A DNA stretch of 64,000 nt from Primulina eburnea. Taxonomy: Eukaryota; Streptophyta; Magnoliopsida; Lamiales; Gesneriaceae. The DNA lies in assembly GCF_022965805.1 (NCBI RefSeq), contig NW_027331363.1, positions 62,001 to 126,000 on the forward strand. The letters are read 5' to 3'. Shown here piece by piece: positions 26-42,787 of this stretch. Below the pieces are notes generated by a model. The model saw only the letters and a program-made list of their open reading frames with translations. It was not told the DNA's origin and did not search any database. The translations under genes were made by a program, and so were the position numbers. Position 1 is the first letter of the stretch, and each line of letters begins with the position of its first letter.

Positions 26-615
26 TGTCACGCCCCGAGCCCGGGCCAGCGCCTGCGTGACTGCACAATGGACCCCTACAGCAACTACTTCGTCTTCGTC
101 CTCGCTTTACGAAAATGATTAACCCAAGTTGCTATAAAAGTCCATTGTAAGCCATTATAAACTCATTTTAAATCTTTGATTTTTTTCGATGTGGGACAAG
201 GGTATCACAATCACCCCTCCTTCAGAACGCGACGTCCTCGTCGCGGCCTGACCCCTCGATCCACCAGCACCGAGAATCTAGAGGTGGCTCCTACAGGTTC
301 AAGAGGTGGCTCCCGTCATGTAGCACTTTGCCCCGCAGGTTCAAGAGGTGGCTCCCATGCACGTAGCACTTTGCCCCGCATAGCACTTATTTCCCGGTGT
401 TCCATGCCGGTGACCGGCTCTGATACCATTCTGTCACGCTCCGAGCCCGGGCCCGCGCCTGCGTGACTGCACAATGGGCCCCTATAGCAACTACTTCGTA
501 TTCGTCCTCGCTTTACGAAAATGATTAACCCAAGTTGCTATAAAAGTCCATTGTAAGCTATTATAAACTCATTTTAAATCTTTGATTTTTTTCGATGTGG
601 GACAAGGGTATCACA
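26..615 (-). mobile_element. TRIM (terminal-repeat retrotransposon in miniature), complete
   Basis: Two ~184-bp direct terminal repeats (26-209 and 432-615) are nearly identical and have TG...CA ends. The flanking 5-bp target duplication is CACCG (21-25 and 616-620). On the minus strand the right repeat is followed at once by TGGTATCAGAGC (plus-strand complement at 417-428), the usual tRNA-iMet primer site, so the element points to the left. The internal part (210-431) is only 222 bp, has no retroviral domain, and contains a short tandem unit (about 294-382, key phrase caagaggtggctcc). The 96-codon ORF across it is not a gene. The host site is the Athila-type LTR. Confidence 0.9.
417..428 (-). 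other. Primer-binding site of the TRIM
   Basis: The minus strand reads TGGTATCAGAGC, complementary to the 3' end of plant initiator tRNA-Met, three bases inside the right-hand terminal repeat. It fixes the orientation of the element. Confidence 0.85.
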
Positions 616-677: not shown

Positions 678-1891
678 GTACCTAACCTGCACCCTCAAGG
701 ACCAAAACCGAACTCTAGCCCTCTTGAAAACAAAAATCATTCCGCCCTCTTGCTGCTGATGTTACAGACCTGAATCTTGCATCTAAAGGACCCTTAAACA
801 CTCTGAAAACCATGCCCATAATATCCCTAACTTGGCAGCCCCCTTCAAACTATTAAAAACGTGAAACCCATTTCAAGAATCAACCCCTTTTTTTTTCAAA
901 CTTTGAATAAATCGCATACACACAATATATCGATACATGCTTGATCAAATACATGAAATTCAGTATAATATTGACGTATATGACGCGAGAATAAAGATAA
1001 AAGCGTGCCTGATAATTAATTTTGGACAAACTATCGAGAAGCTAAAGGCCGAGGAGATGAGCTCTTTGCTTGGAAGGAAATATGGCATCACCGAACTTTG
1101 CAGCAGCAAAATCACAAGGAAGATTGTGAGTGGAGGAGAGGGCGGTTGCTGAAATGTAATTAGGTTAGTGGGATTTTAAGGAATTAATTAAGGGTTAATT
1201 GTTTGGATGATGAAGACTGATGGTTTCCTTTTTCTTGAGCTGATATGAGGAAACCGAGAGGACAGGGAGCTGATGGGTGTGTGTCGGCCGGTTGAGAATT
1301 AGGTTAGGTTAATTAGTTGTTTAGGAGCTTAATTACATAATAATCAAATGGTTAATGGGCCCTAGATTATTTAATTAAAAGTTTAAAGGGTTTTAAGCCC
1401 AACAAGCTTAAAATTAGGCCCATTAAATCCAAACGCACTCCCGAAAAATATTTTGTGTTGAAAAGATTTTAAAAATATTGGCCGAACCTTTAAAAAGTCC
1501 TTCGATTTGATAAAATTTGCGTATTGTTAAAAATAAAATCCTGCGAGTAAAAATACCCAAATAAAATCTCATTTTTTGAGAAATACCCTTAAAACATCTT
1601 AAATTACTTTATAAAAATAAATCTTGCACTCAAATAATTTTCTTGAAAATTCTCCGGTCTATGATCCTCGTTCGAACGTGAAATGCATCTAGAAATCCTA
1701 ATGCATGAATTTCATGAATTAAATCATATCATGTATGAATTATGTATAAAATGCATAAAAATAATTAAACACATAATTAATGAAATAAACATTCATTTAC
1801 TGCTTTAAAACAATTTAATAAAATACCAAAGAAATTTGATAAGTTGTATGCATGTGGTTCCCGTGGACTTTCAAATTTTTGGGACGTTACA
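678..1891 (-). repeat. Truncated chromovirus-type LTR replacing leader, gag and protease
   Basis: The right end (1846-1891), with tgcatgtggttcccgtgg and a terminus in gttaca, matches the ends of the LTRs at 47599 and 52623. On the minus strand it therefore begins TGTAACGTCCC. The left part resembles the matching stretch of those LTRs only loosely, and the outer TG end is missing. It lies between the Athila-type LTR end (677) and mid-reverse-transcriptase (1892), where leader, gag and protease should be. I see no target duplication, so this is a rearranged fragment. The small ORF at 937-1152 has no recognisable domain and is left out. Confidence 0.6.
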
Positions 1892-3030
1892 AGTCGAGTC
1901 CCATCTAGTTGGCGGATGTGTATTGATTATAGAAAATTAAATGACGCCACTAGAAAAGATCATTTTCCATTACCATTTTTGGATCAAATTTTAGAAAGAG
2001 TAGCAGATCATCCATACTACTGTTTTCTTGATGGATATTCAGGTTATTATCAAATTCTCATTATACTCGAAGATCAAGATAAAACTACATTCACATGTCC
2101 TTTTGGAACATTTTCATTTAGAAGGATGCCATTTGGATTATGCAATGCTCCAGTAACATTTCAAAGATGTATGTTAAGCATTTTTTGCGACATGGTTGAA
2201 ATTTTTTTGGAAATTTTCATGGATGATTTAACTGTATTTGGGAATACATTTGATAATTGTCTTGAAAATTTGGAAAAAATTTTAAAAAGATGCGAGGAAA
2301 AATGTCTTATTTTAAATTGGGAAAATGTCATTACATGATTACTTCTGAAATTGTTTTGGGACATGTCGTGTCATCTCATGGAATTGAAGTTGATAAAGCA
2401 AAAGTTGATGTCATTGTCAATTTACCCCCTCCGAAAACCATTAAAGAAATTTGCTCATTTTTGTGACATGCCGGATTTTATAAGAGGTTTATAAAGGACT
2501 TTAATTTAATCTCTAAACCCATTTGTAACCTCTTAACAAAAGATACTGCATTTGAGTGGACTCAAGAATGTCAAAATGCTTTTGATAAAATCATTTGACA
2601 TTTAACATCAGCTCCTATCATGCAACCTCCTGATTGGTCTTTACCATTTGAAATCATGTGTGATGCGAGTGATTATGCAGTCGGTGCAGTATTGGGTCAA
2701 AAAAGAAACGGTAAGCCTTATGTGATATATTATGCAAGTAGAACTTTAAACAATGCTCAAATGAATTACTCCACAACTGAAAAAGAACTACTTGCTGTAA
2801 TATTTGCATTAGATAAATTTCGTTCTTATTTGATTGGATCAACGAATATTGTATTTACTGATCATTCTGCTATTAGATATTTGTTTACCAAACAGGATGC
2901 AAAGCCACGACTGATACGATGGATTTTGTTGCTCCAAGAATTTGACATTGTGATCATAGATAAAAAAAAAAAGAACCGAGAATGTCGTAGCCGATCATTT
3001 ATCGAGACTAGTAACATGACCATCTTGTGA
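1892..3030 (+). pseudogene. Athila/Tat-type reverse transcriptase-RNase H (broken pol)
   Basis: The reading begins mid-domain at the conserved WRMCIDYRKLN segment. It continues through CPFGTFSFRRMPFGLCNAP and the catalytic FMDD box (aspartates at 2222-2227), then RNase H ([14 protein letters not shown] near 2656, TDHSAIRYL near 2854). DGYSGYYQI together with PFGTF and FMDD is the style of the Athila/Tat branch of Ty3 elements, not of chromoviruses. The copy is dead: a frameshift near 2330, TGA stops at 2464-2466 and 2596-2598, and a slip in the A-run at 2961-2972. Everything upstream of the RT palm is missing. Confidence 0.9.
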
Positions 3031-4371
3031 AATGACACCAATTAACGATAATTTTCCTGATGAACATCTATTTTCAGTTACTACTACACACTGGTTTGCA
3101 AACATAGTAAATTTTCTTGTGACAGGAAAAAGCCACCGCAATGGAGTTCCCAAGATAAAAAAAAATGTTTGAATAAGGTAAAAAAATTTTATTGGGATGA
3201 TCCGTATATGTTCAAGTATTGTCCAGATCAAATTTTTCGACGTTGCATACCCGGCAATGAGGTAAGTATTGTCATTAAATTTTGTCATTCAGAAGCATGT
3301 GGAGGACATTTTTCTTCAAAGAAAACGGCTGCAAAAATCTTGCAGTGTCGATTTTATTGGACCACTTTGTTTAAAGACACCCACGAAATCTGCAAGATCT
3401 GTGAAAATTGTCAAAAATTGGGTGCGATTTCAAAAAGAAACATGATGCCTTTGAATCCTATCATTGAAATTGAAATCTTTGACTGTTGGGGAATTGATTT
3501 TATGGGACCTTTTCCACCGTCCTTTGGATACTTGTATATTTTAGTTGCAGTTGATTATGTTTCCAAATGGATAGAGGCAATTCCATGTCGAAGAAACGAT
3601 CATAAAATCGTCATCAAATTTTTAAAAGAAAATATTTTTAGTAGATTTGGAATTCCTCGAGCCATGATAAGTGATGGGAGAACTCACTTTGTTAATAAAC
3701 CATTTGATTCATTAATGAAAAATATGGTATTACTCATAAAGTAACTACTCCTTATCATCCTCAAACAAATGGACAAGTTGAATTGGCTAATAGGGAGATA
3801 AAGCAAATTTTGGAAAAAACTGTTAACTCAAATAGAAAATATTGGTATCTGCTACTTAATGATGCACTTTGGGCATATCGAACAGCTTTTAAAACATCAT
3901 TGAATATGTCTCTCTATAGGTTGGTTTATGAAAAACATTGTCATTTGCCTGTGTAATTGGAACATAAAACTTATTGGGCGATCAAAACATTAAATTCAAG
4001 CATGGATGATGCCAAAAAATTGCGTAAATTGTAACTTAATGAACTTGATGAACTCAGAAATGACGCGTATGAGAATTCAAGGATTTATAAAACAAAAATC
4101 AAATCATTTCATGATAAAACAATTCTTATAAAATCTTTTGAGATTGGTAAAAAAAGTTTTGCTTTATAATTCTCGACTTCACATATTCCCAGGAAAATTA
4201 CGATCAAGATGGACATGCCCATATGTTGTAAAGCATGTGTATACTTATGGAGCTGTGGATATTGAAAATCCTAAAAATGGTGATATTTTTAAAGTAAATG
4301 GACAAAGGCTTAAAACATTTTTGGAAAATGAAATCTTTCAAGAAGAGTTTATTTCCCTTTCTGATCCTTGA
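3031..4371 (+). pseudogene. Athila/Tat-type integrase (broken pol, C-terminal part)
   Basis: This continues the same pol. It has a zinc-binding N-terminus (HEICKICENCQ near 3380-3412) and the catalytic core with GIDFMGPFPPSFG (Asp at 3496-3498) and ISDGRTHF (Asp at 3673-3675). The glutamate lies in [11 protein letters not shown] near 3780, followed by a C-terminal domain ending at the stop 4369-4371. Breaks: a frameshift near 3720 and TAA stops at 3954-3956 and 4032-4034. The pattern matches Athila-type integrases. The stop is followed by a T-run and then two further ORFs on the same strand. Confidence 0.88.
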
Positions 4372-4410
4372 TTTTTTTTTTTTTTACTTTTTTGGTGTTG
4401 CATTTAAGTT

Positions 4411-4428
4411 TGTTTGTTTTTATTTCAG
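4411..4428 (+). promoter_or_regulatory. Possible 3' splice acceptor upstream of the cysteine-rich ORF
   Basis: A T-rich tract ending in TTTCAG|G lies 40-57 bases after the pol stop and 126 bases before the ATG at 4554. Envelope-like ORFs of some plant Ty3 elements are expressed from spliced RNA, so the site is plausible, but it rests on sequence pattern only. Confidence 0.3.
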
Positions 4429-4553
4429 GTTTTCTTAATATTTTTATTTTCCCTGATAAATGGCGGATAACGGTACTCTGTGACTCTCATAGTCGGTTAA
4501 ATCAGTTTCCCACAATTGCTGATACAAAAAAAATCATTTCTTTTCTTTTCAAA

Positions 4554-5098
4554 ATGGATGAAATTCTCTCAAAAATTTGTAAATATTTTCCCTCTGTTTC
4601 TGAAAATGTTCTAAGAAAATTTTATGCAGGAAGGTGTGAAAAATTGAGATTGCTAATGCAAAAAGGAATTCCAGAAGATATTCGTCTTGTAATAGAAGCT
4701 AAGGTCCGATTAGGAGGAGAAGTTCCACAATCATTGCTCATTCGGTATTTGCCTAGATTAGGAAAAAGCACTTATGCGAAAAACGAAGGGCCAAAAGTTT
4801 AGGGGTTTGTCATAAGTGTGCAAGATGGACTTGTGACAAACGATGCAGATCTTTGGGATGTGTTTCCTATAACAGAGAAGATAAAATTGGTTTCATTAAG
4901 AATGGGCTGAGTAATGAGTCTTTAGATAACATCTTATTGACTCTTGAGACGCATTCTAGTGGACATGTGCATATTGAACTTCTCCGTTTATGGAAACAAT
5001 TCCAAGATGAGCATCATAGTCTTAGAAATCCGACTAAAAAAGACCCTGTTTGCCAATTTATAAGAAAATTGGATGGGAAGCATATCCTCGACTCATAG
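4554..5098 (+). pseudogene. Accessory ORF: cysteine-rich zinc-cluster protein, carlavirus CRP-like pattern
   Basis: The ORF starts at ATG 4554 (MDEILSKICKYFP) and ends at TAG 5096-5098, about 180 codons with one frameshift in the A-run near 4779-4783. Three parts can be seen: a helical, leucine-rich N-terminal half; a basic stretch (KRRAKSLG, 4781-4804 in the second frame) directly before a cysteine cluster C-x2-C-x4-C-x3-C-x4-C (4808-4861, core CHKCARWTCDKRC); and a helical tail with GFIKNG. A tyrosine-alanine-basic stretch just before a Cys cluster, then a GCVSYN-like turn, recalls the cysteine-rich nucleic-acid-binding proteins of carlaviruses, small RNA-binding proteins implicated in silencing suppression and host transcription. 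This likeness is my reading, not a database result. There is no membrane segment, so it is not an envelope protein. The hydrophobic run readable from 4368 is only the T-tract. Confidence 0.55.
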
Positions 5099-5251
5099 AA
5101 GGCGTTGAAGCCGTTTCTAGACGTAAAACCAGAGGAAAATTGTGAGCCACAATCACACTACTGTTTATATGCACGTGTGTCATTATTGTTTTTACTATTT
5201 ATTCTGTTTACAGCTGTCACCCATAGTTTTGTCATGATAACATATTACCCC

Positions 5252-5286
5252 TATAAAATCTCTCATCTTTCTCTCTACTTTCGCAG
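5252..5286 (+). promoter_or_regulatory. TATA-like box and splice-acceptor-like tract upstream of the LOG ORF
   Basis: TATAAAAT (5252-5259) is followed by a pyrimidine tract ending in TTTCGCAG (5279-5286), 21 bases before the ATG at 5308. It could be a local promoter, or a 3' splice site giving a subgenomic RNA for the LOG ORF. Pattern evidence only. Confidence 0.3.
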
Positions 5287-5307
5287 ACCAAAAAAGAAAG
5301 TAAAAAC

Positions 5308-5902
5308 ATGGCTGGACTGCACAAACATTGAAAAATATTTGTGTATTTTGTGGGTCGAGTCCGAGAAAAAATGAAGTGTTTGTAGAAGCAGCGAATAATC
5401 TTGGAAAGATATTGGCTGAGAGAAAAATTCACTTGGTATATGGGGGAGGTAATATTGGGTTAATGGGATCTGTTTCAACATCTGCTCATCTTGGAAGTAG
5501 TCAGATTTTGGGTATTATTCCTACAGTTTTAGCTGAAGGAAATATTACAGGTGTTACGATTGGGGATGAATTAAAAGTTTTTTCTATGTATGAAAGAATA
5601 ACTCAAATGATTGAAAATTCTGATGCTTTTATCGCACTACCAGGTGGTTTTGGTACATTAGAAGAAATTTTTCACACTGTTTCTTGGGCACAACTTAATA
5701 TCCATAATAAACCTGTGGGATTGTTGAATATCAATAATTATTATGACAATTTGTTGACATTTTTGATAAAGCTGTGGAACAAAATTTCATTTCAGAAAAT
5801 TCACGATGGATGTTCATCTGTGCTTCGACTGCCGACCAATTAATTGATGATTTGGAAGCTTTTGTTCATAAGCCTCATCCGATGATAACAAAGATCAATT
5901 GA
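5308..5902 (+). pseudogene. LOG-like: Captured LOG-type cytokinin riboside 5'-monophosphate phosphoribohydrolase
   Basis: The readable product runs from ICVFCGSSPRKN to the C-terminus at TGA 5900-5902. LOG enzymes release active free-base cytokinin from its riboside monophosphate in the cytosol. The family signatures are present: GGGNIGLMG (5442-5468) and the PGGxGTxxE motif as PGGFGTLEE (5640-5666), followed by SWAQLNIHNKPVGLLN. Total length, about 195 codons, is slightly short for a plant LOG. ATG 5308 is in a different frame from the body (one base lost between 5310 and 5330), and a second one-base loss near 5763-5768 shifts the last ~45 codons, so the copy is broken. Plant LOG genes have several introns, but this copy has none, which points to capture from spliced RNA. 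It lies between Athila-type pol and the 3' LTR, on the same strand. Confidence 0.88.
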
Positions 5903-6728
5903 TCACAATCAAGCAGTAAGAAAAGGAAGTTGGATCATTGATTCAAAAGTCGTGGATTGGTTTGCGTTTGTTTCAGTTTGTTATCTTCAATAAAATTCTA
6001 GGTGATATCTCTTTCATTATGTACTCTTTATTAATAGTTATTTTGACATTAGGGACAATGTCATATTCTGATTGGGGGGAGAACAAACTTATAAAAAAAA
6101 TAATTAAATTTTTTTTTAAAAAAAATAAAAAATTTATATATTATTTTAAAATAAAATCATGTTTATTGTTTGTATCTTAGTAATTTTTGCAAAAATGTTA
6201 TACATTACATGTTTGAAAGATTTAAATTAGAACATGCATTAATCTATTTAAGAATGTTTAAATTTTTATTTGAAAAAAAAAAAGTCAATTTTAGTATTCT
6301 GATCAATATAAAAATATGATTTATGAAATCTTTTTGAGTGATTACCATTGTGATAAAATCAGGTATTAAAGTATATGGCCCAAGATATACCTTATAAGAG
6401 TGCCTAATATTTTAAACTCACACATTTTTTTTTGAGTGAATGGAGAGGACTGAGAAAACAGCTTTCGAGCCTTTATTGATCATGAGAGAGACTATCTATT
6501 GTTTAGATCTTGAGTTCTTATTTTGAAAAAAAAAAATGATATTTCCTGAAAAAAAAAAGAAAAATACAAAAAGAAAGATATTGAAAATCTATGTAATTTT
6601 TAAGTTATATGCTACGACCCATATATCTCTCATAAAAAAAAAGAAAGAAAGAGAGAAATTTATTGTACAAATTAAATAAATATGTGGTCAAGAAGCATAA
6701 ACTTAGTCTGATTCCATGATGTTATGAA

Positions 6729-6787
<59 letters not shown>

Positions 6788-7219
6788 GAAAAATATATAA
6801 TAAGAACAACTAGATTTTGAATCAATGGATTTTCTATCTTTTGATTAGTTTGGCTCGTTTTTCTGTCTACATTTTGTAAATCATTTTTCTGAGCATTTAT
6901 ATGTATTCCAACTCCATGAGAGAAATCGTTGCCATAAATTGAAACATTTATTAACCTGTGAGGATATGGAGTTGAGACTCTTAATAGGAATTTCTGAAGA
7001 CCGTGTACATTTAACTACCTGAAATAAGCTTTGAATTGATCATCTCAAATTATTTCATAAATTATAATTATGATGATCTTGATATAACTTTGACAGTTTT
7101 CAAATTTAATTTAAATACTTAGATAGTTTTGATTACATTTCTATTTAAATTAATCAATATGTTTTGTATTGCTATTAACGCTTAAATTGCTAGGGAGTAG
7201 CAATAAGCTGGTTGGGAGG
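5903..7219 (+). other. AT-rich 3' non-coding region of the Athila-type element
   Basis: This stretch has no supported gene. It contains gggacaatgtcatattctg followed by a G-run (TTGGGGGGAGA, 6072-6082), a phrase typical of the region after the last ORF in Athila/Tat elements. It also holds an AT microsatellite (6731-6784) and, at its end, a purine tract GTTGGGAGG (7211-7219) directly before the 3' LTR, the likely plus-strand primer. The ORF at 5938-6180 is AT-rich low complexity and is not supported. Confidence 0.65.
6731..6784. repeat. (AT)n microsatellite
   Basis: An uninterrupted AT dinucleotide run of 54 bases. Confidence 0.98.
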
Positions 7220-8623
7220 TGTGATAAACATAAAAATTGTATATTAATTAAATGTTTTATATTATAAATATATAGTTTTTGTTTTATTAAATGTTTAAAT
7301 ATTATATGTTTTATTATAAATTTTATAAAATATAAGTTGTTTTATAATTAAAAGTTTTTATTATTTTTTACAGGTTCGATAAAAAAAGAATAAACTTGGC
7401 GTTGCAAATGTGATTAAGATGATTCTTGGACCTGTAGAAAGTTGATGTTAATATCTACAATATTGGTGGGAAGCATGAGATAAAAATCCTCTCACAATTG
7501 GGATCAAATTAAGCAACAAATAAAGTTACCAAAGGATTGACAGTTTTACCATGCTCTAGTATTTTGACCATATCTCTCAAATTACATGGTCAAATGGTCT
7601 GAAAAAAATACCACAACTAGACAACTCAATTATCCACATGTTTCTTTTTATGTAAAGAAGCAAATTCGGAGAAGAAGATTTTCAAAAGTGATGTGTAATA
7701 TAATATAATATCTAGGAACACCAATGAAGACTTATGTGTAAAAAAATAATATTTTATTTGTGGTTGTCTCCCCAAATTTGGCTATAAATAGGGGTGCATT
7801 GTAATGTATTGAGATATCCCTCATTCTATGAACAAACCTTTGAGTTCATAATATTTATCTCTATATTTTTCCTTTATTTCTTCATTTAAATATAATTAGC
7901 ATGTTAGAATAATGAATAGCTAACTTCCTAAAGTTGAGATGAAAAGGTGAAACTCTTGGCATGATAATAAGGTTACTAAAAGGGTAAGAATCTATGTTTT
8001 ATATTATTTAATCATTATTTATTGTTTATGTTATATTTATTTATTTAAGCATTTGTATACCCTACTTATAAGTGGGAGTTTTGATTTATTGTTGCTATAT
8101 GTTACACTAAATTCTTGGAACCATTTAAATGTTATTTTGGTATTACCAACCATTTAAAGTGGATGCCTTGATTTATTATATATGAATATATTATAATATT
8201 AAATTACTTGGAACCATTTAAATGTTTGTTTGGTTTTACCAACCATTTAAAGTGGGAACCTTGATTTACTATATATAAATATATCATAATATTAATTTCT
8301 TGGTACCATTTATATGTTAGTTTGGTTTTACCAACTATTTAATTTGGGAACCTTGATTTAGTGTTTACAATAATATTCGTTAATGTTAACTTTATTAAAA
8401 TACCAAGAGTGGATCCTTTAATCTCAGCTACTTAAATTAAAATTTGAACAATTAAAAATTACCAATTAAAGATTCAAACAACTAAAAGAAAAAATAAATA
8501 AAAAGACATTGCAGTGGACTTGTAATTACCTTAGCTTCCTCGTGGATACGATATTCGAACTCATCGAATTATACTACTTGTGGAAAATCTGCTCTTGGGA
8601 GTGCAACAATCACAGTCGCAACA
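7220..8623 (+). repeat. 3' LTR of the Athila-type element
   Basis: It begins TGTGATAAAC right after a purine tract and ends in gtcgcaaca, so it has TG...CA ends and ~1404 bp. The last ~85 bases match the 5' LTR remnant at 1-25/621-677. Internally it holds three copies of a diverged ~110-bp unit (key phrase ccatttaaatgt...accaaccatttaa, about 8110-8350). The sequence after 8623 switches abruptly to chromovirus pol, marking the insertion boundary. Confidence 0.75.
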
Positions 8624-8998
8624 CCTAGAAAGAATTGGGACACTCGCATACAAAGTTGCATTTTCGTCAAATCTGGTGGGAGTTCATTATGTGTTCCATG
8701 TCTCCATGCTGCAGAATTACATGTCGAATCCTTTTCATGTGCTGAACTTCGAGCCACTTCAGCTGACACCGAATCTGTCTTTCAAGGAGAGAACCACCCA
8801 AATATTGGATAGACTGGAGAGGAGGCTCCGGAACAAGGTGATCCACATGGTCAAATTCAAGTGACGAAATCATTCCGTGGATCACCTTGTTCTGAAGCCT
8901 CCTCTCCAGTCTATCCGAAATCATTCTGAGGAGGAGGATACTTGGGAGACTGAGGCCGAGATGAGGATTCGCTACCCGGAGTTATTCGGTATGTTTTA
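8624..8998 (+). pseudogene. Chromovirus (Ty3) pol C-terminus, element T1
   Basis: The reading GTLAYKVAF...VHYVFHVSMLQNYMSNP and ...QILDRLERRLRNKVIHMVKF is the end of a Tekay/Del-like integrase. After an inserted inverted segment, EEDTWETEAEMRIRYPELF follows, the chromodomain-like tail, with its stop near 8998. The left part of this pol lies outside the window because the Athila-type element is inserted at 8623. The tail is disrupted by the inverted repeat at 8807-8916. Confidence 0.85.
8807..8916. repeat. Inverted repeat, 40-bp arms, inside pol
   Basis: Arm 8807-8846 and the reverse complement of arm 8877-8916 agree at 38 of 40 bases, with a 30-bp spacer. The second arm is an inverted copy inserted into the coding sequence and is bracketed by two copies of CGAAATCATTC (8865-8875 and 8916-8926). 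Confidence 0.95.
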
Positions 8999-9037
8999 AA
9001 TTTCGAGGACGAAATTCTATTCAAGGGGCCGGGGAGA

Positions 9038-13781: not shown

Positions 13782-15468
13782 TTACTGCGCAAACAACTCA
13801 GGATACTTCTCTTTCATCTCATCCTCTGGTTCCCACGTGGCTTCTTCAATCAAATGATTCCTCCAAAGGACTTTAACAATGCCGATCTCTTTTTTACTCA
13901 ACACTTTAACTTTGCGACCCAGATTCTGGACCGGAATCTCTTGGTATGTCAAATTCAGCGTCAAATCCAATGGCTCGTGACGAAGAAAATGGGAAGGATT
14001 CGCAATATATTTCCTGGGCATTGAAACATGAAAAACATTATGAACTCTGTCAAGATCTGGCGGTAAGGCTAACCAGTAAGCTCTATCACCAACTCTGTCC
14101 AAAATCTCAAATGGGGAAATAAATCTTGGACTCAACTTTCCCTTATTGCCAAACCGCATCACACCCTTAAGAGGTGCTATCTTCAAAAACACATGGTCGC
14201 CAACCTCAAACTGCAACGGCCTACGACGCACATCAGCATAACTCTTCTGTCTTGACTGTGTTGTCATCATCCTCTCCCGAATAACCGCAACAACATCAGC
14301 TGTCTGTTGGACCAACTCTAGACCCAACATCTTCCTCTCACCAATCTCGTCCCAATACAAGGGAGATCTACACTTTCTGCCATAAAGTGCTTCATACGGT
14401 GCCATGCCAATCGTCGCTTGGTAACTGTTATTATACGTGAACTCAACAAGAGGCAATTTGGAATCCACGCTACCAGGATAATCGATAGTACAAGCTCTGA
14501 GCATATCCTCTAGAATCTGAATAACTCTCTGATTGACCGTCGCTCTGGGGATGATATGCTGTACTGAATGCTAACCGTGAACCCATATCTCTGTGCAAAC
14601 TCTTCCAAAACTCTGAAGTAAATCTAGGATCACGATCTGACACGATCGACGCAGGAACAACATGAAGTCTCATAATCTCTGCTATGTACTATTCGGCATA
14701 CTGGTTCATGGAATACGTCGTCTTGACTGGAAGAAAATGAGCTGACTTGGTCAACCGATCAACAATAACTTAAATAGAGTTAAAACCTTTTTGCGTTCTG
14801 GGAAGATCAGTCACAAAATCCATCGTAATATGCTCCCATTTCCATTGAGGAATTGACAATGACAACAATGTCCCAGCAGGTCTCTGGTGCTCGATCTTCA
14901 CCTGCTGACAAGTTAGGCACTGAGAAATAAACATGGCAATATCTTTCATCATACCTGGCCACCAATAGAGTCTACGAAGATCGTGATACATCTTGGTGCT
15001 ACCTGGATGTATCGAGTATGGCGCTGTATATGCCTCTGTCAAGACGTCTTGCAGAATATCATCACCAGTAGGAACACAAATACGGCCTCTGAATGTCACC
15101 AAATCATCTCCATTTGTCCCAAACACTGAATTACCTCTCTCCTCTGCTCTGGCTCTCAACTCCGTCAATTGTAAATCATTGACCTGCTCTCTACGGATCC
15201 TGTCCGTCAAAGTAGCCCGAATGCCCAACGCTGAAAAGCGAGCAATGGTCCCCAGAAACACCAAAGCTATCTCCCCTCGCTGCAAATCTAACAACAATGG
15301 CTTCTGAATCAAAGAATTCAAAGAAGAACTCAACTTATGGCTCAAAGCATCCGCTACAACATTCGCTTTCCCTGAGTGGTAACTAATCATCACATCATAG
15401 TCTTTGACAAACTCTAACCACCGTCTCTGTCGCATATTGAGTTCTTTTTGAGAAAACAAATACTTCAA
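13782..15468 (-). pseudogene. RNase H end and integrase of element B
   Basis: Reading on the minus strand: [19 protein letters not shown] (RNase H end), the zinc-binding region with CLTCQQ, the catalytic core with ITMDFVTDLP and [12 protein letters not shown], then KLPLVEFTYNNSYQ. The C-terminal VFLKIAPLKGVMRFG region and a chromodomain-like tail (EEATWEPEDEMKEKYPELF) end at the stop 13782-13784. Breaks include a stop after FNSI near 14770, a stop after the QYAE segment near 14690 and a frameshift near 14520 just after the integrase glutamate. It is therefore non-functional. Confidence 0.9.
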
Positions 15469-15737
15469 ACTTTGTGGTCCGTGAAAATTTCACACTTTTT
15501 GCCATATAAATAATGTCTCCAGATTTTCAAGGCGAAAACCACAGCTGCCAGCTCCAAATCATACGTAGGATAATTCTTCTCGTAGTCCTTCAACTGGCGA
15601 GAAGCATAAGCTATAACTTTCCCACGTTGCATCAGCACTGCACCAAGACCTTTCTTCGACGCATCGGTATAAACAACAAAGTCCTCTGAACCACTGGGCA
15701 ATGCAAGTACCGGAGCTGTCGTCAACTTATCTTTCAA
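15465..15737 (-). pseudogene. RNase H of element B
   Basis: It directly continues the frame of the 819-codon ORF after an in-frame TAG (15738-15740). It shows [16 protein letters not shown], the typical Ty3 RNase H start, and [20 protein letters not shown]. The frame is lost at HKV because one base is missing before KYLFSQ, so it runs into the next ORF by a frameshift near 15470. Confidence 0.9.
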
Positions 15738-18197
15738 CTATTGGAATCCACTCTGGCATTCATTGGACCACTCAAACTTCACAGTCTTCCTCGTCAGATT
15801 GGTTAACGGCAAGGCAATCTTTGAAAAATATGAAATAAAACGACGATAATAACCCGCCAAACCAAGAAAACTGCGTACCTCTGATACAATAGTAGGAATA
15901 GGCCACTTCTGAATCGCCTCAATTTTCACAAGATCAACAGCTATACCATCCTTCGAGACAACACGGCCTAAGAAAGAAATCTGCTCCAACCAGAAATCAC
16001 ATTTCTTCAATTTAGCATGCAACCTCTTCTCTCTTAACAACTGAAGAACAACTCCGAGGTGCTCTGAATGAAGCTCTGTGGTCTTAGAATAAATCAATAT
16101 GTCATCGATGAAAACAATGACAAATCTATCGAAATATGGCTTGAATACTCGGTTCATAAGATCCATGAAGACTGAAGGAGCATTAGTCAGACCAAAAGAA
16201 ATCACAAGAAATTCATAATGACTGTACCTGGTCCGGAACGTCATCTTAGGGATATCAGACTCCCTAACCTTAAACTGATAATAGCCAGATCGCAGATCAA
16301 TCTTCGAAAACACGGTAGCCCCTTGCAGCAGATCAAACAAGTCATCTATCCGTGGCAAGGGATATTTATTTTTGATAGTCACTTTGTTGATCTCTCTGTA
16401 ATCAATGCAAAGCCGCAAAGACCCGTCTTTCTTTTTGACAAAAAGAACCGGAGCTCCCCAAGGAGAAGAACTCGGCCAAATAAAACCTTTATCTAAAAGA
16501 TCTTGAAACTGCGTCTTCAACTCTTTCATCTCTGAAGGGGCCATTCTATACGGAGCCTTAGAAATAGGAACCGTACTCGGAACTAGATCAATCACAAACT
16601 CTACATCTCTATCCGGCGGTAAACCCGGCACATCATCCTCAAATACATCAGGAAACACTCTCACAACATCAATATCATCAATATTCAACTTTACAATTCT
16701 ATCCACATCCACAATCGAAGCCAAAAACCCATCACAACCTCTAAACAACTTCTTAGCCTCAAGACATGAAATAAAAGGAAGGACCAGCGAAGTACCTGCA
16801 CTGGCGAGCATACCTTCCCTATTGCCATCATCTGCAAATTTCACCGTCTTAGCAACGCAATCAATTACTGCACGATAGGTTGATAGCCAATCCATGCCAA
16901 TAATAATATCAAATGCAACCACTGGAATAACAATCAAATCGGCATAAACCACTCGCTCATCAATTTGAACAGAGCACGCATACACAATAGATTTCGGGCA
17001 CAACACATCCCCCGAAGGCAAAACAACATTAAACTGGAGGGGAAGAACAGAAGGAACTATACCCAAAGTTCTCAAAAATAGTTCAGACATAAAATAGTGA
17101 GTAGCACCTATATCAATCAATGTCGTAGCTACTCTGCCTGAAATTAAAATAGTGCTAGAGATCACAGAAGAATCATGGTTTATACCTTCCTTCGTCATGG
17201 TGAAGATGCGACCCTGCACCTTCTCTTTACTCGCTCCTCTTGGACAGTCTTTGGCAATATGGCCTGCAGTTCCACATCGATAACAAGTATGAGTACCAAA
17301 TCTGCACTCTCCCCGATGATGTCTACTGCACTTGGGACACAATGGCTTCTCAGGATCAAATGGAACTGCCGGTGGTTTAGGACTCGGCTCTAACTTGCCT
17401 TTCCCCTTGAAATTGCCTTTTCCTCTTTGATTCGAACTTTGAAATCTCTGAACAATGGCTTGCTGCCTTGCCTGTCTCTCTCTGGCAATGTCTTTCTCAT
17501 CTTGCTCGGATAACAAAGTCTTAGCCACAATCTCTTTGAATGTCACAGCCTTCGACATGTTGATGTCCCTTCTGATCTCTGTTTTAAGGCCTCTAATGAA
17601 ATGATCACCCTTGTCTTTGTCATTGGAGGCAATGTACGGGGCAAATAGACAGCCCTCCTCGAACTTCAGAATGTACTCGTCAACATTCAAACCTCCTTGA
17701 CGAAGTTCCAAAAACTCAGTCACCTTCCGAGCTCGAAGTGCATCTGGGAAGTACTTGTCATAGAAAATATCAGTTAACTCTTGCCACTTCAATGCCGGAA
17801 CATCCACACTAACCTTTGTAGCATTCCACGAAATGTGTGCAGCTTTGACTAACGTGAACAATGCACAACTGATTCTGTCCTTGTCTTCATAGTTGAGATG
17901 ATCGAAAATCGCCTCAAGAGCTTTGATCCACTCTACGGCCACCAATGGATCAGTGCTTCCTGCAAATTCAGGTGGATCAATCCTCTTGAAAGCAGTAAAG
18001 ATCCCATCGGTCCCAACTGCTTGAGCCACTTGACCTCTCCCTTGGCCTCTACCTTGGCCTGTTCTTGGCAATCGAATCAGTTGCTGAATCTGCTCACTAT
18101 GGACCTTGGCTTGCTCTTTCAGTAACTTGCCGAACCCGTCGACGACTCTCGAGGAAGAACTATCCTCACCCTCTGAAGCATTTCTCTTAGGAGGCAT
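15738..18197 (-). CDS. Gag-protease-reverse transcriptase of element B (819 codons, truncated by TAG)
   Basis: The start [17 protein letters not shown] follows the primer site by ~120 bases. The retrotransposon gag domain covers about residues 90-215, and a CCHC knuckle [14 protein letters not shown] starts near residue 305. The aspartic protease motif near residue 362 reads [10 protein letters not shown], where the usual DTGA is changed to DIGA. The reverse transcriptase runs from about residue 560 with [15 protein letters not shown] and the catalytic FIDDILIYS near residue 696 (16101-16112). The frame is open over gag to RT and stops at TAG 15738-15740 at the connection to RNase H. With downstream breaks it would give at most a Gag-PR-RT product, and the protease change may disable that too. 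Confidence 0.93.
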
Positions 18198-26998: not shown

Positions 26999-27570
26999 AA
27001 TGTACACAAAATGAAAGAAATGCAAATTTATTTCTTGAAAAAGTGGTAATTTTGGGTCATATAATATCAAAGGAAGGCTTATCTATATATCCAAGAAAAA
27101 TTATAGCTATTAATAACTGGCTCATACCAACCAATGTTTCAGAGATGTGCAGTTTTTTTAGTTTAGCTGATTATTACCGTAACTTTGTAGCAGGATTTAC
27201 GAAAATCTCATTGTCCATAACTTCTTTGACAAGAAATGATGCAAAGTTTATTTAGAGTGAGGCATGTGATCGAAGCTTTCACGAATTGAAATCTAATTTA
27301 ACATCAACACTTGTGATTGCAATTCCAGAAGGAACATGAGGATTTTTATTATACAGAGATGCTTCTATATATGGGACTAGGTATAGTATTGATGCAATAT
27401 GGAAATGTTATTGCTTAAGCCTCGAGACAATTGAAGTGGTATCAAAAGAACTACCAAACACATTATTTGTACTGAGAGCAGTGGTGCTTGCATTGAAAAT
27501 ATGGAGACATTACTTTTATGGTGAAAAATGTGAGATTTAAACGGATTACAAAAGTCTTATATACTTTTTG
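26999..27570 (+). pseudogene. Ty3 reverse transcriptase C-terminus and RNase H fragment, plus strand
   Basis: The reading ANLFLEKVVILGHIISKEGLS followed by NVSEMCSFFSLADYYRNFV is the RT thumb/connection. It continues into RNase H-like YRDAS and [16 protein letters not shown] sequence, with stops and frameshifts (TAG near 27253, TGA near 27338). It seems to continue the RT half read on the opposite strand at 27830-28275. It is flanked on both sides by repeat G. Confidence 0.75.
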
Positions 27571-27572
27571 GC

Positions 27573-27826
27573 GGGATTTTTCCCTGCTGGGGTGCACCTG
27601 CCTCAGCCTGGGGCTCTGGGTATCGTCTTAGCTGCCTTTCCGGTTCATTTTAACTCGAATGATTTTTTGCTCAATGCGACTTCCTGAAATGATTCCTTGA
27701 ACTTCTTCAAGCATTTGAATATGCTTGTTTTTTCATCTTTATTCATAATCAGTCTTGTAAAATCGAGAAAACACAATTGTTTTCATCTCCTCCCAAGATT
27801 TATCATGTCATGCACGGTCAGATCCA
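27573..27826. repeat. Repeat G, copy 2
   Basis: Aligned by eye with 24755-25028 joined to 26970-26995. The shared phrase catgtcatg...agat(t/c)catat at 26969-26993 and 27803-27826 shows the site before the solo LTR insertion. No coding content is supported. Confidence 0.55.
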
Positions 27827-36191: not shown

Positions 36192-38132
36192 CAGGCCAGA
36201 GTTTTCGCTTTGACAGAGGAGCAGGCCCAGGAAGCACCAGATGATGTGGTGGCAGGTAACTGTTCTTTATGTGGTTATCCTGCTTACGTATTAATTGATA
36301 CCGGTGCTTCACACACATTTATTTCTGAACGATTTGCATTAAGTCATGCATTGCCTGTAGAGTCTTTAGCTACTGTAGTGTCTGTCTCTTCTCCGTTGGG
36401 GATGGGTTTGATAACCGTGAATTCGGTTAACCATTGTGTGCTACAGTATGACGGGCATGAGATTGAGTTAGATTGCATTGTACTTGGATTGTCTGACTTT
36501 GATTGTATTATCGGTGTTGATATGCTAACCAAGTACAGAGCGATAGTTGATTGTTTCCACAAGATAGTGAGATTCAGACCAGATATGGCTGAAGAGTGGA
36601 AATTTTACGGTAAGGGTTCTAGATCGAGAATTCCTTTAGTATCCGTATTATCTATGACTCGATTGTTACAGAAAGGAGCAGAAGGGTTCCTTGTATATTC
36701 AGTAGATTTACTGAAGTCGAGTCCAGCATTGGCAGATCTGCCAGTGGTACGTGAGTTTGCTGACGTCTTCCCAAATGAGATCTCGGGATTACCTCCAGTT
36801 AGAGAGATAGACTTCAGCATTGAACTGATGCCAGGTACAGTACCGATTTCTAGAGCTCCGTACAGAATGGCACCAGTTGAACTGAAAGAATTGAAGGATC
36901 AGTTGGAAGATTTACTGGCCAAGGGGTACATCAGACCGAGTGTTTCTCCTTGGGGTGCACCAGTATTATTTGTAAGGAAGAAAGATGGTTCGATGAGACT
37001 CTGCATCGACTATCGGCAACTGAACAAGGCAACGATAAAGAATAAATATCCTTTGCCTCGTATAGATGATTTATTCGATCAGTTGCAGGGTTCTTCACTA
37101 TATTCCAAGATCGATTTGAGATCGGGATATCATCAGCTGAGAGTCAGAGATTCTGATATCTCAAAGACCGCATTCAGAACCAGGTATGGGCACCATGAAT
37201 TTATTGTCATGCCGTTTGGTCTGACGAATGCTCCAGCTGTATTCATGGGATTGATGAACCGTATCTTCCAGAAATATCTCGATGATTTTGTGATTATTTT
37301 CATCGATGATATTTTGATTTATTCAAAGAATATGAGTGAGCATGCTGAGCATTTAAGAACTGTGTTACAAATTCTAAGGGCTGAGAAGTTATATGCTAAA
37401 CTGTCGAAATGTGAGTTTTGGCTAAGACATGTAGTATTTCTGGGTCATATTATATCTGGAGATGGTATATCTGTTGATCCCAGTAAGGTGGAAGCCGTGA
37501 TTTCTTGGCCAAGACCAACGTCAGTAACCGAAATACGCAGTTTCATGGGTTTAGCAGGATATTACCGTCGTTTTATTAAAGATTTCTCGAGTATAGCTAA
37601 ACCAATTACTCAGCTGACTCAGAAGAATGCTCCATTTGTTTGGTCTGATGAATGTGAGACCAGTTTTATGGAGTTGAAGAAGAGATTGACCAGTGCACCG
37701 GTGTTGACTATTCCATCCGGTACTGGTGATTTTGTGGTTTATTGCGACGCTTCTCACAGAGGGTTGGGATGTGTGTTGATGCAACGAGGGCATGTTATCG
37801 CTTATGCCTCAAGACAGCTTAAACCACATGAGACCCGCTATCCAATTCATGACCTGGAATTGGCAGCCATTGTCTTTGCATTAAAGATATGGCGACACTA
37901 TCTTTATGGTGAAAAGTTTGTGATATATTCTGATCATAAGAGTTTGAAATATCTGTTTTCACAATCTGAATTGAATATGAGACAGCGAAGATGGCTGGAT
38001 TTGCTTAAAGACTTTGATTGTGAAATCAAATACTATCCGGGAAAGTCTAATGCAGCAGCCGATGCACTGAGTCGAAAGGTATGTTCTTTATCCTTATCGA
38101 CGATAGGTGTTTCAAATTTGATAGAAGACTGA
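36192..38132 (+). CDS. Protease-reverse transcriptase-RNase H of element C
   Basis: It continues the gag frame after TAG, so no start codon is required. The protease motif is [10 protein letters not shown] (Asp at 36297-36299). RT has [15 protein letters not shown] and [10 protein letters not shown] (Asp pair 37305-37310). RNase H has [11 protein letters not shown] (Asp at 37746-37748), [14 protein letters not shown] and [10 protein letters not shown]. All catalytic acids that I can recognise are present. The frame stops at TGA 38130-38132, and reading continues in the same frame afterwards. Confidence 0.95.
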
Positions 38133-39629
38133 TGTTTGTCTGGATTAGAATTTGAAACAGATTATAGACCGTTGAGACTTTATACGGTGCAAGTAGAACC
38201 AGAGCTGATTATAAGAATTAAGGCAGCTCAGAAAGTCGATCAGAATGTACAGAAATCAGTATCGATGGTTAGAGCAGGACATCGATCAGAGTATCAGGTA
38301 CGTGATAACGTCTTGTACGTGAATCATCGTCTGGTTGTGCCGAATGTTTCAGATTTGAGATGACAGATATTGTCAGAAGCGCACAACAGTCGATTCAGTA
38401 TTCATCCTGGTGGCAGAAAGATGTACAATGATTTGAAAAGACAGTTCTGGTGGAAACAAATGAAGACTGATATCGCCGAATTTGTTTCCAAATGTCTGAA
38501 TTGCCAACAGGTGAAAGCAGAAAGAAAGAAACCAGGAGGATTAATACAGAGCTTGTCCATTCCTGAATGGAAATGGGATCACATTTCTATGGATTTTGTG
38601 ACACAGTTGCCGCGTTCCTCCCGAGGTTGTGATGCGATTTGGGTCGTGATTGACAGATTGACCAAATCCGCAAGTTTTATTCCGTACAAGATGACGTACA
38701 GATTTGACCAAATGGCAGAGATCTATATCAGAGAAGTGGTCAGATTGCATGGAGTGCCGAAGTCGATTGTATCAGATCGTGATCCTCGATTTACTTCGCA
38801 CTTCTGGCACAGTTTGCAGCAGGCTCTCGGTACGAAGTTACATCTGAGTACCGCATATCATCCACAGACCGACGGACAGTCAGAACGGACTATCCAGACA
38901 CTGGAGGATATGCTGAGAGCAGTAGTGCTAGATTTCAGCACTAATTGGCAAGATGCATTGCCTCTTTGTGAGTTTTCGTACAACAACAGCTATCAGACGA
39001 GTATTGAGATGGCTCCTTTTGAAGCGTTGTACGGTAAGAAATGTTGATCCCCTCTCTATTGGGATGATATCTCTGAAGTTCCTGAAATTGGACCAGATAT
39101 GATCAGAGATATGACCGAAAAAGTGAAGCTAATTCAAAAGAAAATGAAGGCAGCACAAGATAGACAGGCCAAATATGCCAACGTTCGACGTAGACCGTTG
39201 GTATTTGACGTAGGAGACCGAGTATTTTTGAAGATCTCACCTTTCAGAGGAATTGTCAGATTTGGCAAGAAAGGGAAACTGTCTCCACGATATATTGGGC
39301 CTTATGCGATTCTCGAAAAGATAGGAGATCGTGCCTATCGACTTGCCCTACCTCCTTCATTATCAGGAATACATGATGTCTTTCATGTATCGTTATTAAG
39401 GAAGTACCTTCCTGATGCTTCACATGCTATTCAACCAGACGAGACCGAGCTGGACGAGACATTGAGTTATGTCGAGAAACCGATTCGGATTATCGATCGT
39501 AAAGAAAAACAGCTCAGAACGAAGATGATTCCACTTGTGAAAGTGCAATGGACTCCTCATGGTGTAGAAGAAGCAACCTGGGAGACTGAATCAGATATGA
39601 GACAAGAATTCCCAGAGTTATTTCGATGA
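38133..39629 (+). pseudogene. Integrase and C-terminal tail of element C (interrupted by TGA codons)
   Basis: Same frame as gag and RT. The zinc-binding region has SIHPGGRKMYNDL and CLNCQQ. The core has [22 protein letters not shown] and GQSERTIQTLEDML, so the Asp-Asp-Glu triad is present. Then come a VFLKISPFRG-type domain and a chromodomain-like tail EEATWETESDMRQEFPELF ending at 39627-39629. In-frame TGA codons at 38361-38363 and 39045-39047 (plus 38130-38132 upstream) break it. There is no frameshift in the whole gag-pol. Confidence 0.93.
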
Positions 39630-41461: not shown

Positions 41462-42787
41462 CAGTGTAACGACTCCTCATATTGTCTTCGGTTTCCCAAG
41501 TAGTCGCCTCATCGGAATGATTTAACCACTTGACCTTGAACAACTTGTTAACATTTTTCTGTAGTATCCTCTCCTATCAATCTAAAATCTGAATAGACTT
41601 TTTCTCATATGACAGGTTCAGTAATAGCTGAAACGGCTCAAAGCTTAGTACATGTGAAGGATTCGCCATGTATTTCCTTATCATAGAAACGTGGTACATA
41701 TTGTGAACACCTGCCAGATTTGGCGGCAGTGCTACACGATAGGCTAATGTTCCCACCTTTTCAAGGATCTTGAATGGTCCTATGAATCTCGGACTCAACT
41801 TGACTTTCTTCTTGGTTCTCATAACACCCTTCATAGATGTTATTTTTATGAAGACATGATCTCCTATAGCAAACTCTAGGTCCCTTCTTCTCTAGTCAAC
41901 ATGTTTCTTTTGATGAGTCTGAGCAGTTTTCATCCTGTCCGAATTTTGACTACTAATCCACGGTCTGCTGAACAATTTCTGGACACCAATTTCTGATCTC
42001 TCGCCGACCTCATCTCAGTGAATAGGCGATCTGCACTTCCTTCCATATAATTCCTTGCCGGGAGCTATATCTAAAGATGACTGGAAACTGTTGTTATAGG
42101 TGAACTCAACTAGGGGTAGTTTCAATTCCCAATCCCCATGGAAATAAATCACACATGCACTCAGTAGGTCTTCTAAAATCTGTATCATCCTCTTGGACTG
42201 ACCATCTTTAAAAGGATGTAATGTTGTACTGAATAGAAATTTCATCCCCATTGTGAAATGTAAACACTTCCAAAAGGACGAGGTGAACCTCAGATCTCTA
42301 TCAGATATGATGGTAGCTGGGATCCCGTGTAACCTCACTATCTCCCGTATATGAAGCTCTGCATACTGCGACATAGAAAAGGTCGTCTTTATCAACAAAA
42401 AGTGTGTTGACTTAATAAGACTATTAGCGAGTACCTGAATGGTGTTGGATCCTCTGACTGACCTCAACAATCTGACTACGAAATCCATGGTAATATTTTT
42501 CTCATTTCCACTCGAGTATAGGAAGAGGCTTGACCTCCCTGCTGGTCTCTGATACTTTGTTTTCATCTGCTAGCAAGTTAGACATTCAGATATAAAGCAT
42601 TGAATATTTCCTTTCATTCCTTGTCACCAACAAAGCATCTGCAGATCTTTATACATCTCGGTACCTCATGGATTAATGGAATATGGTGTTTTATACGCTT
42701 CTGACAATATATATATCCCTTAATCGCATCATCTCTAGGAACCCAAATACTTCATCTATACCTTACAATCCCATCGTTCACCTATCA
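41462..42787 (-). pseudogene. Element E integrase (minus strand, truncated)
   Basis: From right to left: a degraded zinc region (about 42560-42690), the catalytic core with ITMDFVVRLLRS and IISDRDLRFTSSFW (42566-42015), KLPLVEFTYNNSFQ, a GTLAYRVALPPNLAGVHN segment (41834-41577) and a tail with ATTWETEDNMRSRY near 41480-41510. The integrase glutamate is replaced: the usual GQSER reads GQSKR (near 42190-42205). Several stops occur. The upstream pol is missing; at 42788 the sequence switches to a T-family LTR. Confidence 0.85.

What the first reader, a model, noticed from the sequence alone, without database searches (positions are those of the whole stretch)
4372..5902. Athila-type retrotransposon carrying two accessory ORFs: a zinc-cluster protein and a cytokinin-activating enzyme
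Between the pol stop (4371) and the 3' LTR, where Athila elements may hold an env-like ORF, there are two same-strand ORFs: a cysteine-rich basic protein (4554-5098) and a LOG-type phosphoribohydrolase (5308-5902). Local free cytokinin favours dividing cells, and a nucleic-acid-binding effector could affect silencing. The inferred idea is an element that conditions its host cell. The linkage and order are seen; the function is inference.
Basis: partly seen in the sequence, partly recalled or inferred. Interest (0 to 1): 0.92.

Follow-up and report, generated by a model that had tools for sequence, protein, structure and literature searches.

The report
Jumping gene carrying two accessory genes
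A family of plant retrotransposons carries two extra genes, one resembling a plant-virus protein that can block RNA silencing and one resembling an enzyme that activates a growth hormone; many copies in this genome keep both genes open, which suggests they help the element.

Summary
The window copy is a dead, 5'-truncated Athila-type element whose CRP and LOG frames are broken. In the same genome (probably Primulina eburnea), 37 other places carry the stretch nearly end to end at 94-96% identity. Of 20 copies fetched, 16 keep the full 181-aa CRP, 15 the full 212-aa LOG, 13 both. Two searches, each capped at 150 rows, put a LOG within 1.5 kb downstream of 100 of 150 CRPs.
The CRP is a relative of the Viral_NABP/Carla_C4 proteins of plant flexiviruses, several of which are annotated as RNA silencing suppressors. 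Relatives of both genes lie in rosids and asterids; CRP shows purifying selection between two plants. Of 95 listed LOGs, 79 end in a basic tail plus LxLxL, like a nuclear signal plus EAR repression motif; the window family lacks LxLxL. Splice-acceptor-like sites precede both ORFs.
LOG in Athila-type elements is already reported; I found no report of the CRP or the pair. Function is inferred: silencing suppression plus local cytokinin activation. New variant of a known kind.

The parts
1889..4371 (+). 5'-truncated Athila-type pol remnant (RT, RNase H, integrase), broken by several stops and frame changes
   Evidence: an open homologue in another copy carries RT, RNase H and integrase domains
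4409..4428 (+). splice-acceptor-like site upstream of the CRP start
   Evidence: second best of 245 AG sites in 1889-7000 by an ad hoc score; motif found in 20 of 20 copies; 70 of 1000 dinucleotide shuffles reach it
4460..4525 (+). conserved noncoding block between pol and CRP
   Evidence: 55 of 66 positions identical to a different plant's copy (L032), against 53 of 87 in the flank before it
4554..5098 (+). CRP pseudogene: Viral_NABP/Carla_C4-type cysteine-rich protein (181 aa in open copies), frame broken here
5090..5156 (+). conserved block from the last CRP codons into the noncoding stretch after the stop
   Evidence: 60 of 66 compared positions identical to L032, against 64 of 140 after it; no strong fold
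5267..5286 (+). splice-acceptor-like site 22 nt before the LOG start
   Evidence: best of 245 AG sites; exact motif in 18 of 20 copies; 3 of 1000 shuffles reach it
5308..5941 (+). LOG-type phosphoribohydrolase pseudogene (212 aa in open copies), frame broken and early stop at 5900-5902 here
5942..7221 (+). 3' noncoding region ending in a polypurine stretch
   Evidence: shared with other copies
7222..8623 (+). 3' LTR; TATA-like CTATAAATAG at 7782 and donor-like GT at 7984
   Evidence: donor motif retained in 14 of the 15 copies in which it was located, out of 20

Best explanation
This is a dead copy of a recently multiplied Athila-type Ty3/gypsy element family that carries a two-gene accessory module in the env position. 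Shown by sequence: the module (CRP then LOG) is part of the family in this genome; both frames are open in most of the copies examined and show purifying selection; relatives of both genes occur in rosids and asterids. Inferred: the two genes are translated from spliced mRNAs that join an LTR leader exon to acceptors just before each ORF, as retroviruses do for env. Inferred: the CRP works like its flexivirus relatives, as a nuclear nucleic-acid-binding protein that weakens RNA silencing and/or changes host transcription, so that the element's RNA survives. Inferred: the LOG converts cytokinin nucleotides to free cytokinin, favouring dividing cells in which new insertions can be inherited. In many related families a basic tail plus a terminal LxLxL suggests that the LOG also acts in the nucleus as a TOPLESS-type co-repressor partner.
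For: Family: 37 other near-full-length places in the genome; 144 of 150 scored CRP places and 148 of 150 scored LOG places without a stop (best-scoring places only); 100 of 150 CRPs followed by a LOG within 1.5 kb. In two copies LTR pairs are 99.4-99.5% identical and an Athila-type PBS follows the 5' LTR. CRP: PF05515 above its cut-off in 8 of 8 full-length relatives tested and PF01623 in 7 of 8; both in an open copy from this genome, PF05515 only just (23.2 against 23). Structure comparison: none of 38 matches has E <= 0.001, but 22 of the best 25 are small proteins of plant flexiviruses, 20 of them named nucleic-acid- or RNA-binding proteins or silencing suppressors. Selection: between two plants CRP dN/dS is 0.28 by NG86 (0.17-0.37 over three methods), pol 0.11-0.15; within this genome dN/dS is lower in more distant pairs, CRP 0.76 to 0.23 and LOG 0.43 to 0.19. 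LOG: nearest solved structure is Arabidopsis At2g37210; the motif PGGxGTxxE is kept; 37 of 39 LOG hits in the tree form one clade, 100/99. Tail: 79 of 95 listed LOGs of 205 aa or more end in LxLxL. Splicing. Virus CRP functions: PMC9650830 and PMC10141686, passages.
Against: There is no RNA or protein evidence. The structure model is poor (mean pLDDT 67.6, pTM 0.33) and its matches are individually weak (best E 0.073). The CRP cysteine spacing CX2CX4CX3C (62 of 68) differs from the carlavirus CX2CX12CX4C, so the zinc site and its activity may differ. The acceptor before CRP is matched by 19-70 of 1000 shuffles, and by 49 of 1000 in L032, so it is only suggestive; the scores are ad hoc and I saw the sites before scoring. 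One related plant contig has CRP and no LOG in the 983 bp that follow. The Primulina family has no LxLxL end (25 of 25 read). The 20 copies and the 150-row lists are best matches, biased to young open copies; requiring open frames and binning by dS both push dN/dS down in distant pairs. Among close copies the ratio is higher: CRP 0.64, LOG 0.46, pol 0.37 (5 copies). LOG dN/dS between plants was not measured.
Confidence: 0.55

Rival explanations
1. The accessory proteins serve the element directly, not the host cell: CRP is a nucleocapsid-like RNA chaperone or packaging and nuclear-import factor, and LOG has been turned into a nuclear adaptor (basic tail plus LxLxL) with cytokinin chemistry secondary.
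For: Basic KKRRAKR next to a Cys cluster in CRP. LxLxL and basic tail in 79 of 95 listed LOGs. Cysteine spacing unlike carlavirus CRPs.
Against: The LOG active-site motif is kept in the 19 aligned LOGs. The Primulina family lacks the LxLxL while its LOG stays open in 15 of 20 copies and constrained, so the enzyme core matters on its own.
Confidence: 0.25
2. CRP and LOG are neutral passengers: transduced sequence that travels with the element and has no function.
For: The window copy and 7 of 20 fetched copies have at least one of the two broken. Retrotransposons do transduce genes (recalled). One related contig lacks LOG.
Against: Full-length protein models in several plant genera. dN/dS 0.17-0.37 for CRP between two plants and about 0.2 for LOG in the most distant pairs here.
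Confidence: 0.1
3. On origin: flexiviruses took their NABP gene from such retrotransposons, or both took it from a plant gene, rather than the element capturing it from a virus.
For: Only homology is shown; no direction is tested. The element protein (about 182 aa) is longer than the named viral matches among the best 25 (62-170 aa).
Against: The family is known from several virus genera (virus names; genera recalled). I recall no plant gene of this family outside elements; not searched.
Confidence: 0.3
4. The LOG piece is a separate later insertion in this copy, unrelated to the retrotransposon.
For: None found for this copy. One related contig lacks LOG, so it was added or lost in the lineage at some time.
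Against: Same position in 37 other places and within 1.5 kb of 100 of 150 CRP places. A Rhamnella gene model runs from CRP into LOG (P0091).
Confidence: 0.02

Closest known systems
Athila/Calypso/BAGY-2 elements with env-like ORFs (endogenous plant retrovirus lineage; PMC1142308 passages; PMC6317226 passages)
   Same: Athila-type PBS a few bases after the 5' LTR, extra ORF region 3' of pol; splicing of an env-like ORF in BAGY-2 is recalled, not seen here
   Different: In place of an env-like ORF there is a virus-type NABP and a LOG
LTR retrotransposons with a YgdH/LOG domain in Citrus and Populus (PMC9289625, one section and passages; citing Steinbauerova 2011, not held; its abstract is recalled as naming two Athila-like elements similar to LOGL4)
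   Same: LOG-type extra ORF in Ty3/gypsy elements; the Populus LOGs placed in the tree fall in the same clade as the window's family
   Different: The section and passages seen do not mention the CRP, the tail motif or splicing; this report adds the CRP partner, the spread and the selection results
Carlavirus and other flexivirus NABP/CRP (Pfam PF01623, PF05515)
   Same: Basic motif followed by a cysteine cluster; Pfam scores above cut-off
   Different: Longer (about 182 aa), cysteine spacing CX2CX4CX3C, carried by a retrotransposon
Plant LOG cytokinin-activating enzymes (At2g37210, At5g11950)
   Same: Same domain, PGGxGTxxE motif, 43-54% identity for the element LOGs compared
   Different: Uninterrupted frame inside an element; separate clade; basic tail, with terminal LxLxL in 79 of 95 listed
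Orchid Gypsy elements with an AlkB RNA demethylase (PMC9289625, abstract)
   Same: Accessory gene that may counter host control of the element
   Different: Different proteins; there the enzyme activity was assayed

Membership tests
Athila lineage (Ty3/gypsy) | Athila-type (tRNA-Asp) primer binding site just after the 5' LTR | tested here: met
   TGGCGCCGTTGCCGGGGA a few bases after the LTR end in 2 of 2 copies read; tRNA-Asp use is from PMC1142308 (Calypso, Diaspora) and recall, not computed
Athila lineage (Ty3/gypsy) | gag, protease, RT, RNase H, integrase order | tested here: met
   Pfam hits on two adjoining pieces of one open copy, scanned apart
Athila lineage (Ty3/gypsy) | Position in an RT/INT tree; no archaeal RNase H | not tested
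   No reference tree was built; Athila motifs in pol are recalled
Viral_NABP / Carla_C4 family | Pfam score above curated cut-off | tested here: met
   PF05515 in 8 of 8 and PF01623 in 7 of 8 full-length relatives; two partial gene models in the same call had neither; both in an open copy of this genome; the broken window piece alone scores below cut-off
Viral_NABP / Carla_C4 family | Basic NLS-like motif followed by zinc finger CX2CX12CX4C (as in the carlavirus of PMC10141686) | tested here: not met
   Basic motif and CX2C present in that order, but spacing is CX2CX4CX3C in 62 of 68; so a family relative, not a carlavirus-type CRP
Viral_NABP / Carla_C4 family | Silencing suppression, nucleic-acid binding | not testable with these tools
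   Needs bench assays
LOG phosphoribohydrolase | Lysine_decarbox/LOG domain with PGGxGTxxE motif | tested here: met
LOG phosphoribohydrolase | Conversion of cytokinin riboside monophosphate to free base | not testable with these tools
   Needs enzyme assay
EAR-motif repressors | LxLxL motif | tested here: inconclusive
   Present at the C-terminus in 79 of 95 listed LOG hits of 205 aa or more, absent in the window's family; host LOG tails not compared; TOPLESS binding not testable; meaning of LxLxL is recalled

The most novel reading that the evidence does not exclude
An old lineage of endogenous plant retrovirus-like elements carries a pathogenicity module made of an RNA-virus-type silencing suppressor and a hormone-activating enzyme that in many families is also a nuclear co-repressor adaptor. 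Both are made from retrovirus-like spliced mRNAs and together keep infected cells dividing and unsilenced, as viruses and gall-forming bacteria do.
Probability: 0.3. Interest if true: 0.92.

Novelty: new variant of a known kind. Interest (0 to 1): 0.77.

Why it matters
If the module works as inferred, a retrotransposon lineage combines two tactics known from plant pathogens: blocking RNA silencing and shifting cytokinin. That would make it directly testable whether plant elements manipulate their host cell rather than only hide from silencing. It would also link an RNA-virus protein family to retrotransposons, and it suggests that some LOG gene models in plant annotations are element genes.

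Tried and rejected
Rejected: LOG as a separate late insertion; the LTR end at 613-677 as the 5' LTR of this element (solo LTR with GTACC on both sides); a strongly folded RNA in the conserved blocks (z +0.14, -0.81, -0.89, -1.79); Rfam matches (2 weak, both below the family cut-off).

Led nowhere: viral-contig scans with the CRP (no relative). The third protein search, with a 63-aa core chosen to admit short viral proteins, listed no virus-named protein among its best 120 of 322; most rows carry no name. Paper searches. None of the listings reports the CRP in a retrotransposon, but one search listed only 10 of 3,866 and most subscription papers are not held. A survey of RNA-virus sequences in plant genomes (PMC3136472, passages) has a flexivirus replicase piece in cucumber and no mention of a nucleic-acid-binding or cysteine-rich protein. 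Whether host plant LOGs also end in LxLxL was not tested: only two Arabidopsis LOGs were at hand and their last residues were not shown. Whether Athila copies without the module exist in this genome was not tested.

Dropped rows: for dN/dS only naturally open frames were used (CRP 28 of 33 sources, 27 without L032; LOG 25 of 33). An earlier script misread one copy; its top bin is not used. The tail entropies use 55 distinct tails from 84 of 95 LOGs that fit a loose pattern which itself asks for L-like residues at the L positions, so they are only partly informative; many of these LOGs come from a few genera. In one search only the 12 commonest offsets were printed, 85 of the 100 links.

Full report
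What is there. The window lies in an 812 Mb genome (G000, contig C833:62001-126000). Contig C1 of that genome has the same length, 65,783,404 bases, as the longest contig behind P0127, a protein named from Primulina eburnea, so I take the genome to be P. eburnea (Gesneriaceae); this is an inference. The window copy is a decayed Ty3/gypsy element: pol from about 1889 to 4371 with RT and integrase domains but broken by stops and frame changes, then a cysteine-rich ORF, a LOG homologue, a long noncoding stretch and a 3' LTR at about 7222-8623. Both accessory frames are broken in this copy. The LTR end at 613-677 belongs to a solo LTR with GTACC on both sides, so the 5' part of the element is missing.

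It is a family, not an accident. The CRP-LOG stretch recurs nearly end to end at 37 further places at 94-96% identity, plus three partial rows. Of the 20, 16 keep the full 181-aa CRP, 15 the full 212-aa LOG and 13 both, read as they stand. With a Populus CRP as query, 144 of 150 scored places have no stop (1,354 first-look candidates); with a Xanthoceras LOG, 148 of 150 (1,326 candidates). These are the best-scoring places, so the open fraction is biased upwards. Comparing the two lists, 100 of 150 CRP places have a LOG place within 1,500 bp downstream on the same strand, against 0.02 expected; the 85 links whose offsets were printed lie at 766-771 or 845-851 bp, two values because start coordinates are counted differently on the two strands. 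In two copies the 5' and 3' LTRs are 99.4% and 99.5% identical over about 1,450 bp, so these insertions are recent. The PBS is of the Athila type in both and the gag-pol pieces carry the expected domains.

What the CRP is. The window piece alone only hints at Carla_C4 (10.7 bits, cut-off 20.9). Full-length relatives pass the Pfam cut-offs: Viral_NABP in 8 of 8 tested and Carla_C4 in 7 of 8 (the other two proteins in that call are partial gene models and match neither). An open copy from this genome passes both, narrowly for Viral_NABP (23.2 against 23). A predicted structure is poor (pTM 0.33). Searched against viral predicted structures it gives no match with E of 0.001 or less (best 0.073). 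Yet 22 of the best 25 of 38 matches are small proteins of plant flexiviruses (virus names from the table, their family by recall): 20 named nucleic-acid- or RNA-binding proteins or silencing suppressors, one a 15-kDa protein, one 'HP'; three are unnamed. The conserved core is a basic stretch followed by CX2CX4CX3C in 62 of 68. A carlavirus CRP has an arginine-rich NLS followed by CX2CX12CX4C (PMC10141686, passages). So it is a relative with a different cysteine spacing. The chrysanthemum virus B protein is reported to bind nucleic acids, act as a plant transcription factor affecting cell size and proliferation, and suppress silencing (PMC9650830, background passage; the primary Plant Cell paper is not held).

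What the LOG is. The closest solved structure is Arabidopsis At2g37210 (2.3e-47), and the PGGxGTxxE motif is kept (its role is recalled). In a tree of 43 rows, 37 of 39 LOG hits form one clade (100/99) beside two Xanthoceras proteins, away from two Arabidopsis and two bacterial LOGs. Host sampling is thin, so a single capture is likely but not proved. A Primulina gene model called LOG3-like (P0127) falls inside the element clade. Of 95 LOG hits of 205 aa or more (among the 120 listed of 8,000 scored), 79 end in LxLxL, after a KKRK-like tail in most shown. In 55 distinct tails the L positions vary little (entropy 0.68, 0.13, 0.49, 0.00) and the residues between them more (1.22, 1.53, 1.61), but the tails were chosen by a pattern that favours L there. 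By recall this is the shape of an EAR motif next to a nuclear signal. The Primulina family ends in KLDH without it in 25 of 25 read.

Spread and selection. CRP hits include proteins named from Rhamnella, Xanthoceras, Populus, Parasponia and Orobanche; LOG hits from Populus, Diplodiscus, Reevesia, Parasponia, Xanthoceras, Paulownia and Primulina. In Rhamnella one gene model runs from a pol-like end into CRP (P0108, by eye) and another from CRP into LOG (P0091, with the LOG domain confirmed). Between an open copy here and a plant-like contig hidden in a bacterial MAG (L032), CRP dN/dS is 0.28 by NG86, 0.37 by LWL85 and 0.17 by YN00; pol is 0.11 by NG86 and 0.15 by LWL85, and YN00 failed for pol. 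Among close copies in this genome the ratios are 0.64 for CRP (16), 0.46 for LOG (15) and 0.37 for pol (5). With more copies they fall with dS: CRP 0.76, 0.32, 0.23 and LOG 0.43, 0.32, 0.19. This is the pattern of neutral decay after insertion on top of a constrained active lineage, though binning by dS and choosing open frames exaggerate it. L032 has pol and CRP but no LOG in the 983 bp after it: no open LOG frame and no tblastn match with any of four LOGs beyond 13 residues in pol at E near 7 or more. So CRP can occur without LOG. Contig lengths shared between CRP and LOG hits (8,723; 4,511; 2,128) hint at further linked pairs but do not prove them.

How it may be expressed. By an ad hoc acceptor score, the two best of 245 AG sites in 1889-7000 are 5286, just before the LOG start, and 4428, before the CRP start. 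I had noticed both before scoring. The LOG site is matched by 3 of 1000 dinucleotide shuffles, the CRP site by 70 (window) or 19 (an open copy). The acceptor motifs are found in 20 of 20 copies (CRP) and 18 of 20 (LOG); these are close relatives. L032 has an acceptor-like site in the same gap before CRP, second best of its 161 AGs, but it does not align base for base with the window's and 49 of 1000 shuffles match it. The best donor-like site of 204 GTs (202 in the second copy) in the LTR-to-RT piece lies in the LTR, about 220 bp after a TATA-like box, matched by 9 of 500 shuffles. It is kept in 14 of the 15 copies where it could be located, of 20. This fits retrovirus-style splicing of an LTR leader to each ORF, but only RNA data can show it. 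Two blocks beside CRP are conserved between L032 and the window (55 of 66 and 60 of 66, against 53 of 87 and 64 of 140 in flanks); their role is unknown.

Interpretation. The most likely reading is a retrotransposon that carries two host-acting genes in the env position. CRP would work like a flexivirus silencing suppressor or transcription factor; LOG would raise local free cytokinin, and in many families may also recruit co-repressors. Identity, linkage, spread and selection are shown by sequence, within the limits given. Expression, activity and effect on the host cell are inference.

Novelty. Extra ORFs in Athila elements (PMC6317226), and LOG/YgdH domains in LTR elements of Citrus and Populus, are in print (PMC9289625; Steinbauerova 2011 through its citation only, its abstract recalled). 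In the searches listed I found no report of the virus-type CRP, of the CRP-LOG pair, or of the tail motif. I rate it a new variant of a known kind.

Noticed in passing
window 26-615: Small TRIM-like insertion with 184-nt terminal direct repeats (97% alike) and CACCG on both sides, nested in the solo Athila LTR.
   Followed up: partly
window 8624-9000: C-terminal piece of a chromovirus-like pol directly right of the Athila 3' LTR (SH3_Tf2-1 domain within 8580-8861), so the Athila lies in or beside another element.
   Followed up: no
window 14109-16412 (-), 27046-27573 (+), 36999-39311 (+), 41910-42326 (-): Further Ty3-type pol remnants by tblastn (20-41% identity).
   Followed up: no
window 4460-4525 and 5090-5156: Two blocks conserved between distant plants flank the CRP; no strong fold. 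Role unknown.
   Followed up: partly
P0127: Primulina gene model LOG3-like falls inside the element LOG clade: a domesticated copy or a second subfamily; the genome search for it did not complete.
   Followed up: partly
L032; P0308: Plant element sequence sits in records labelled bacterial (a Nomurabacteria MAG contig and a 293-bp Clostridioides difficile contig), most likely contamination.
   Followed up: partly
L014: One decayed copy has a single 406-aa frame running from CRP into LOG.
   Followed up: no
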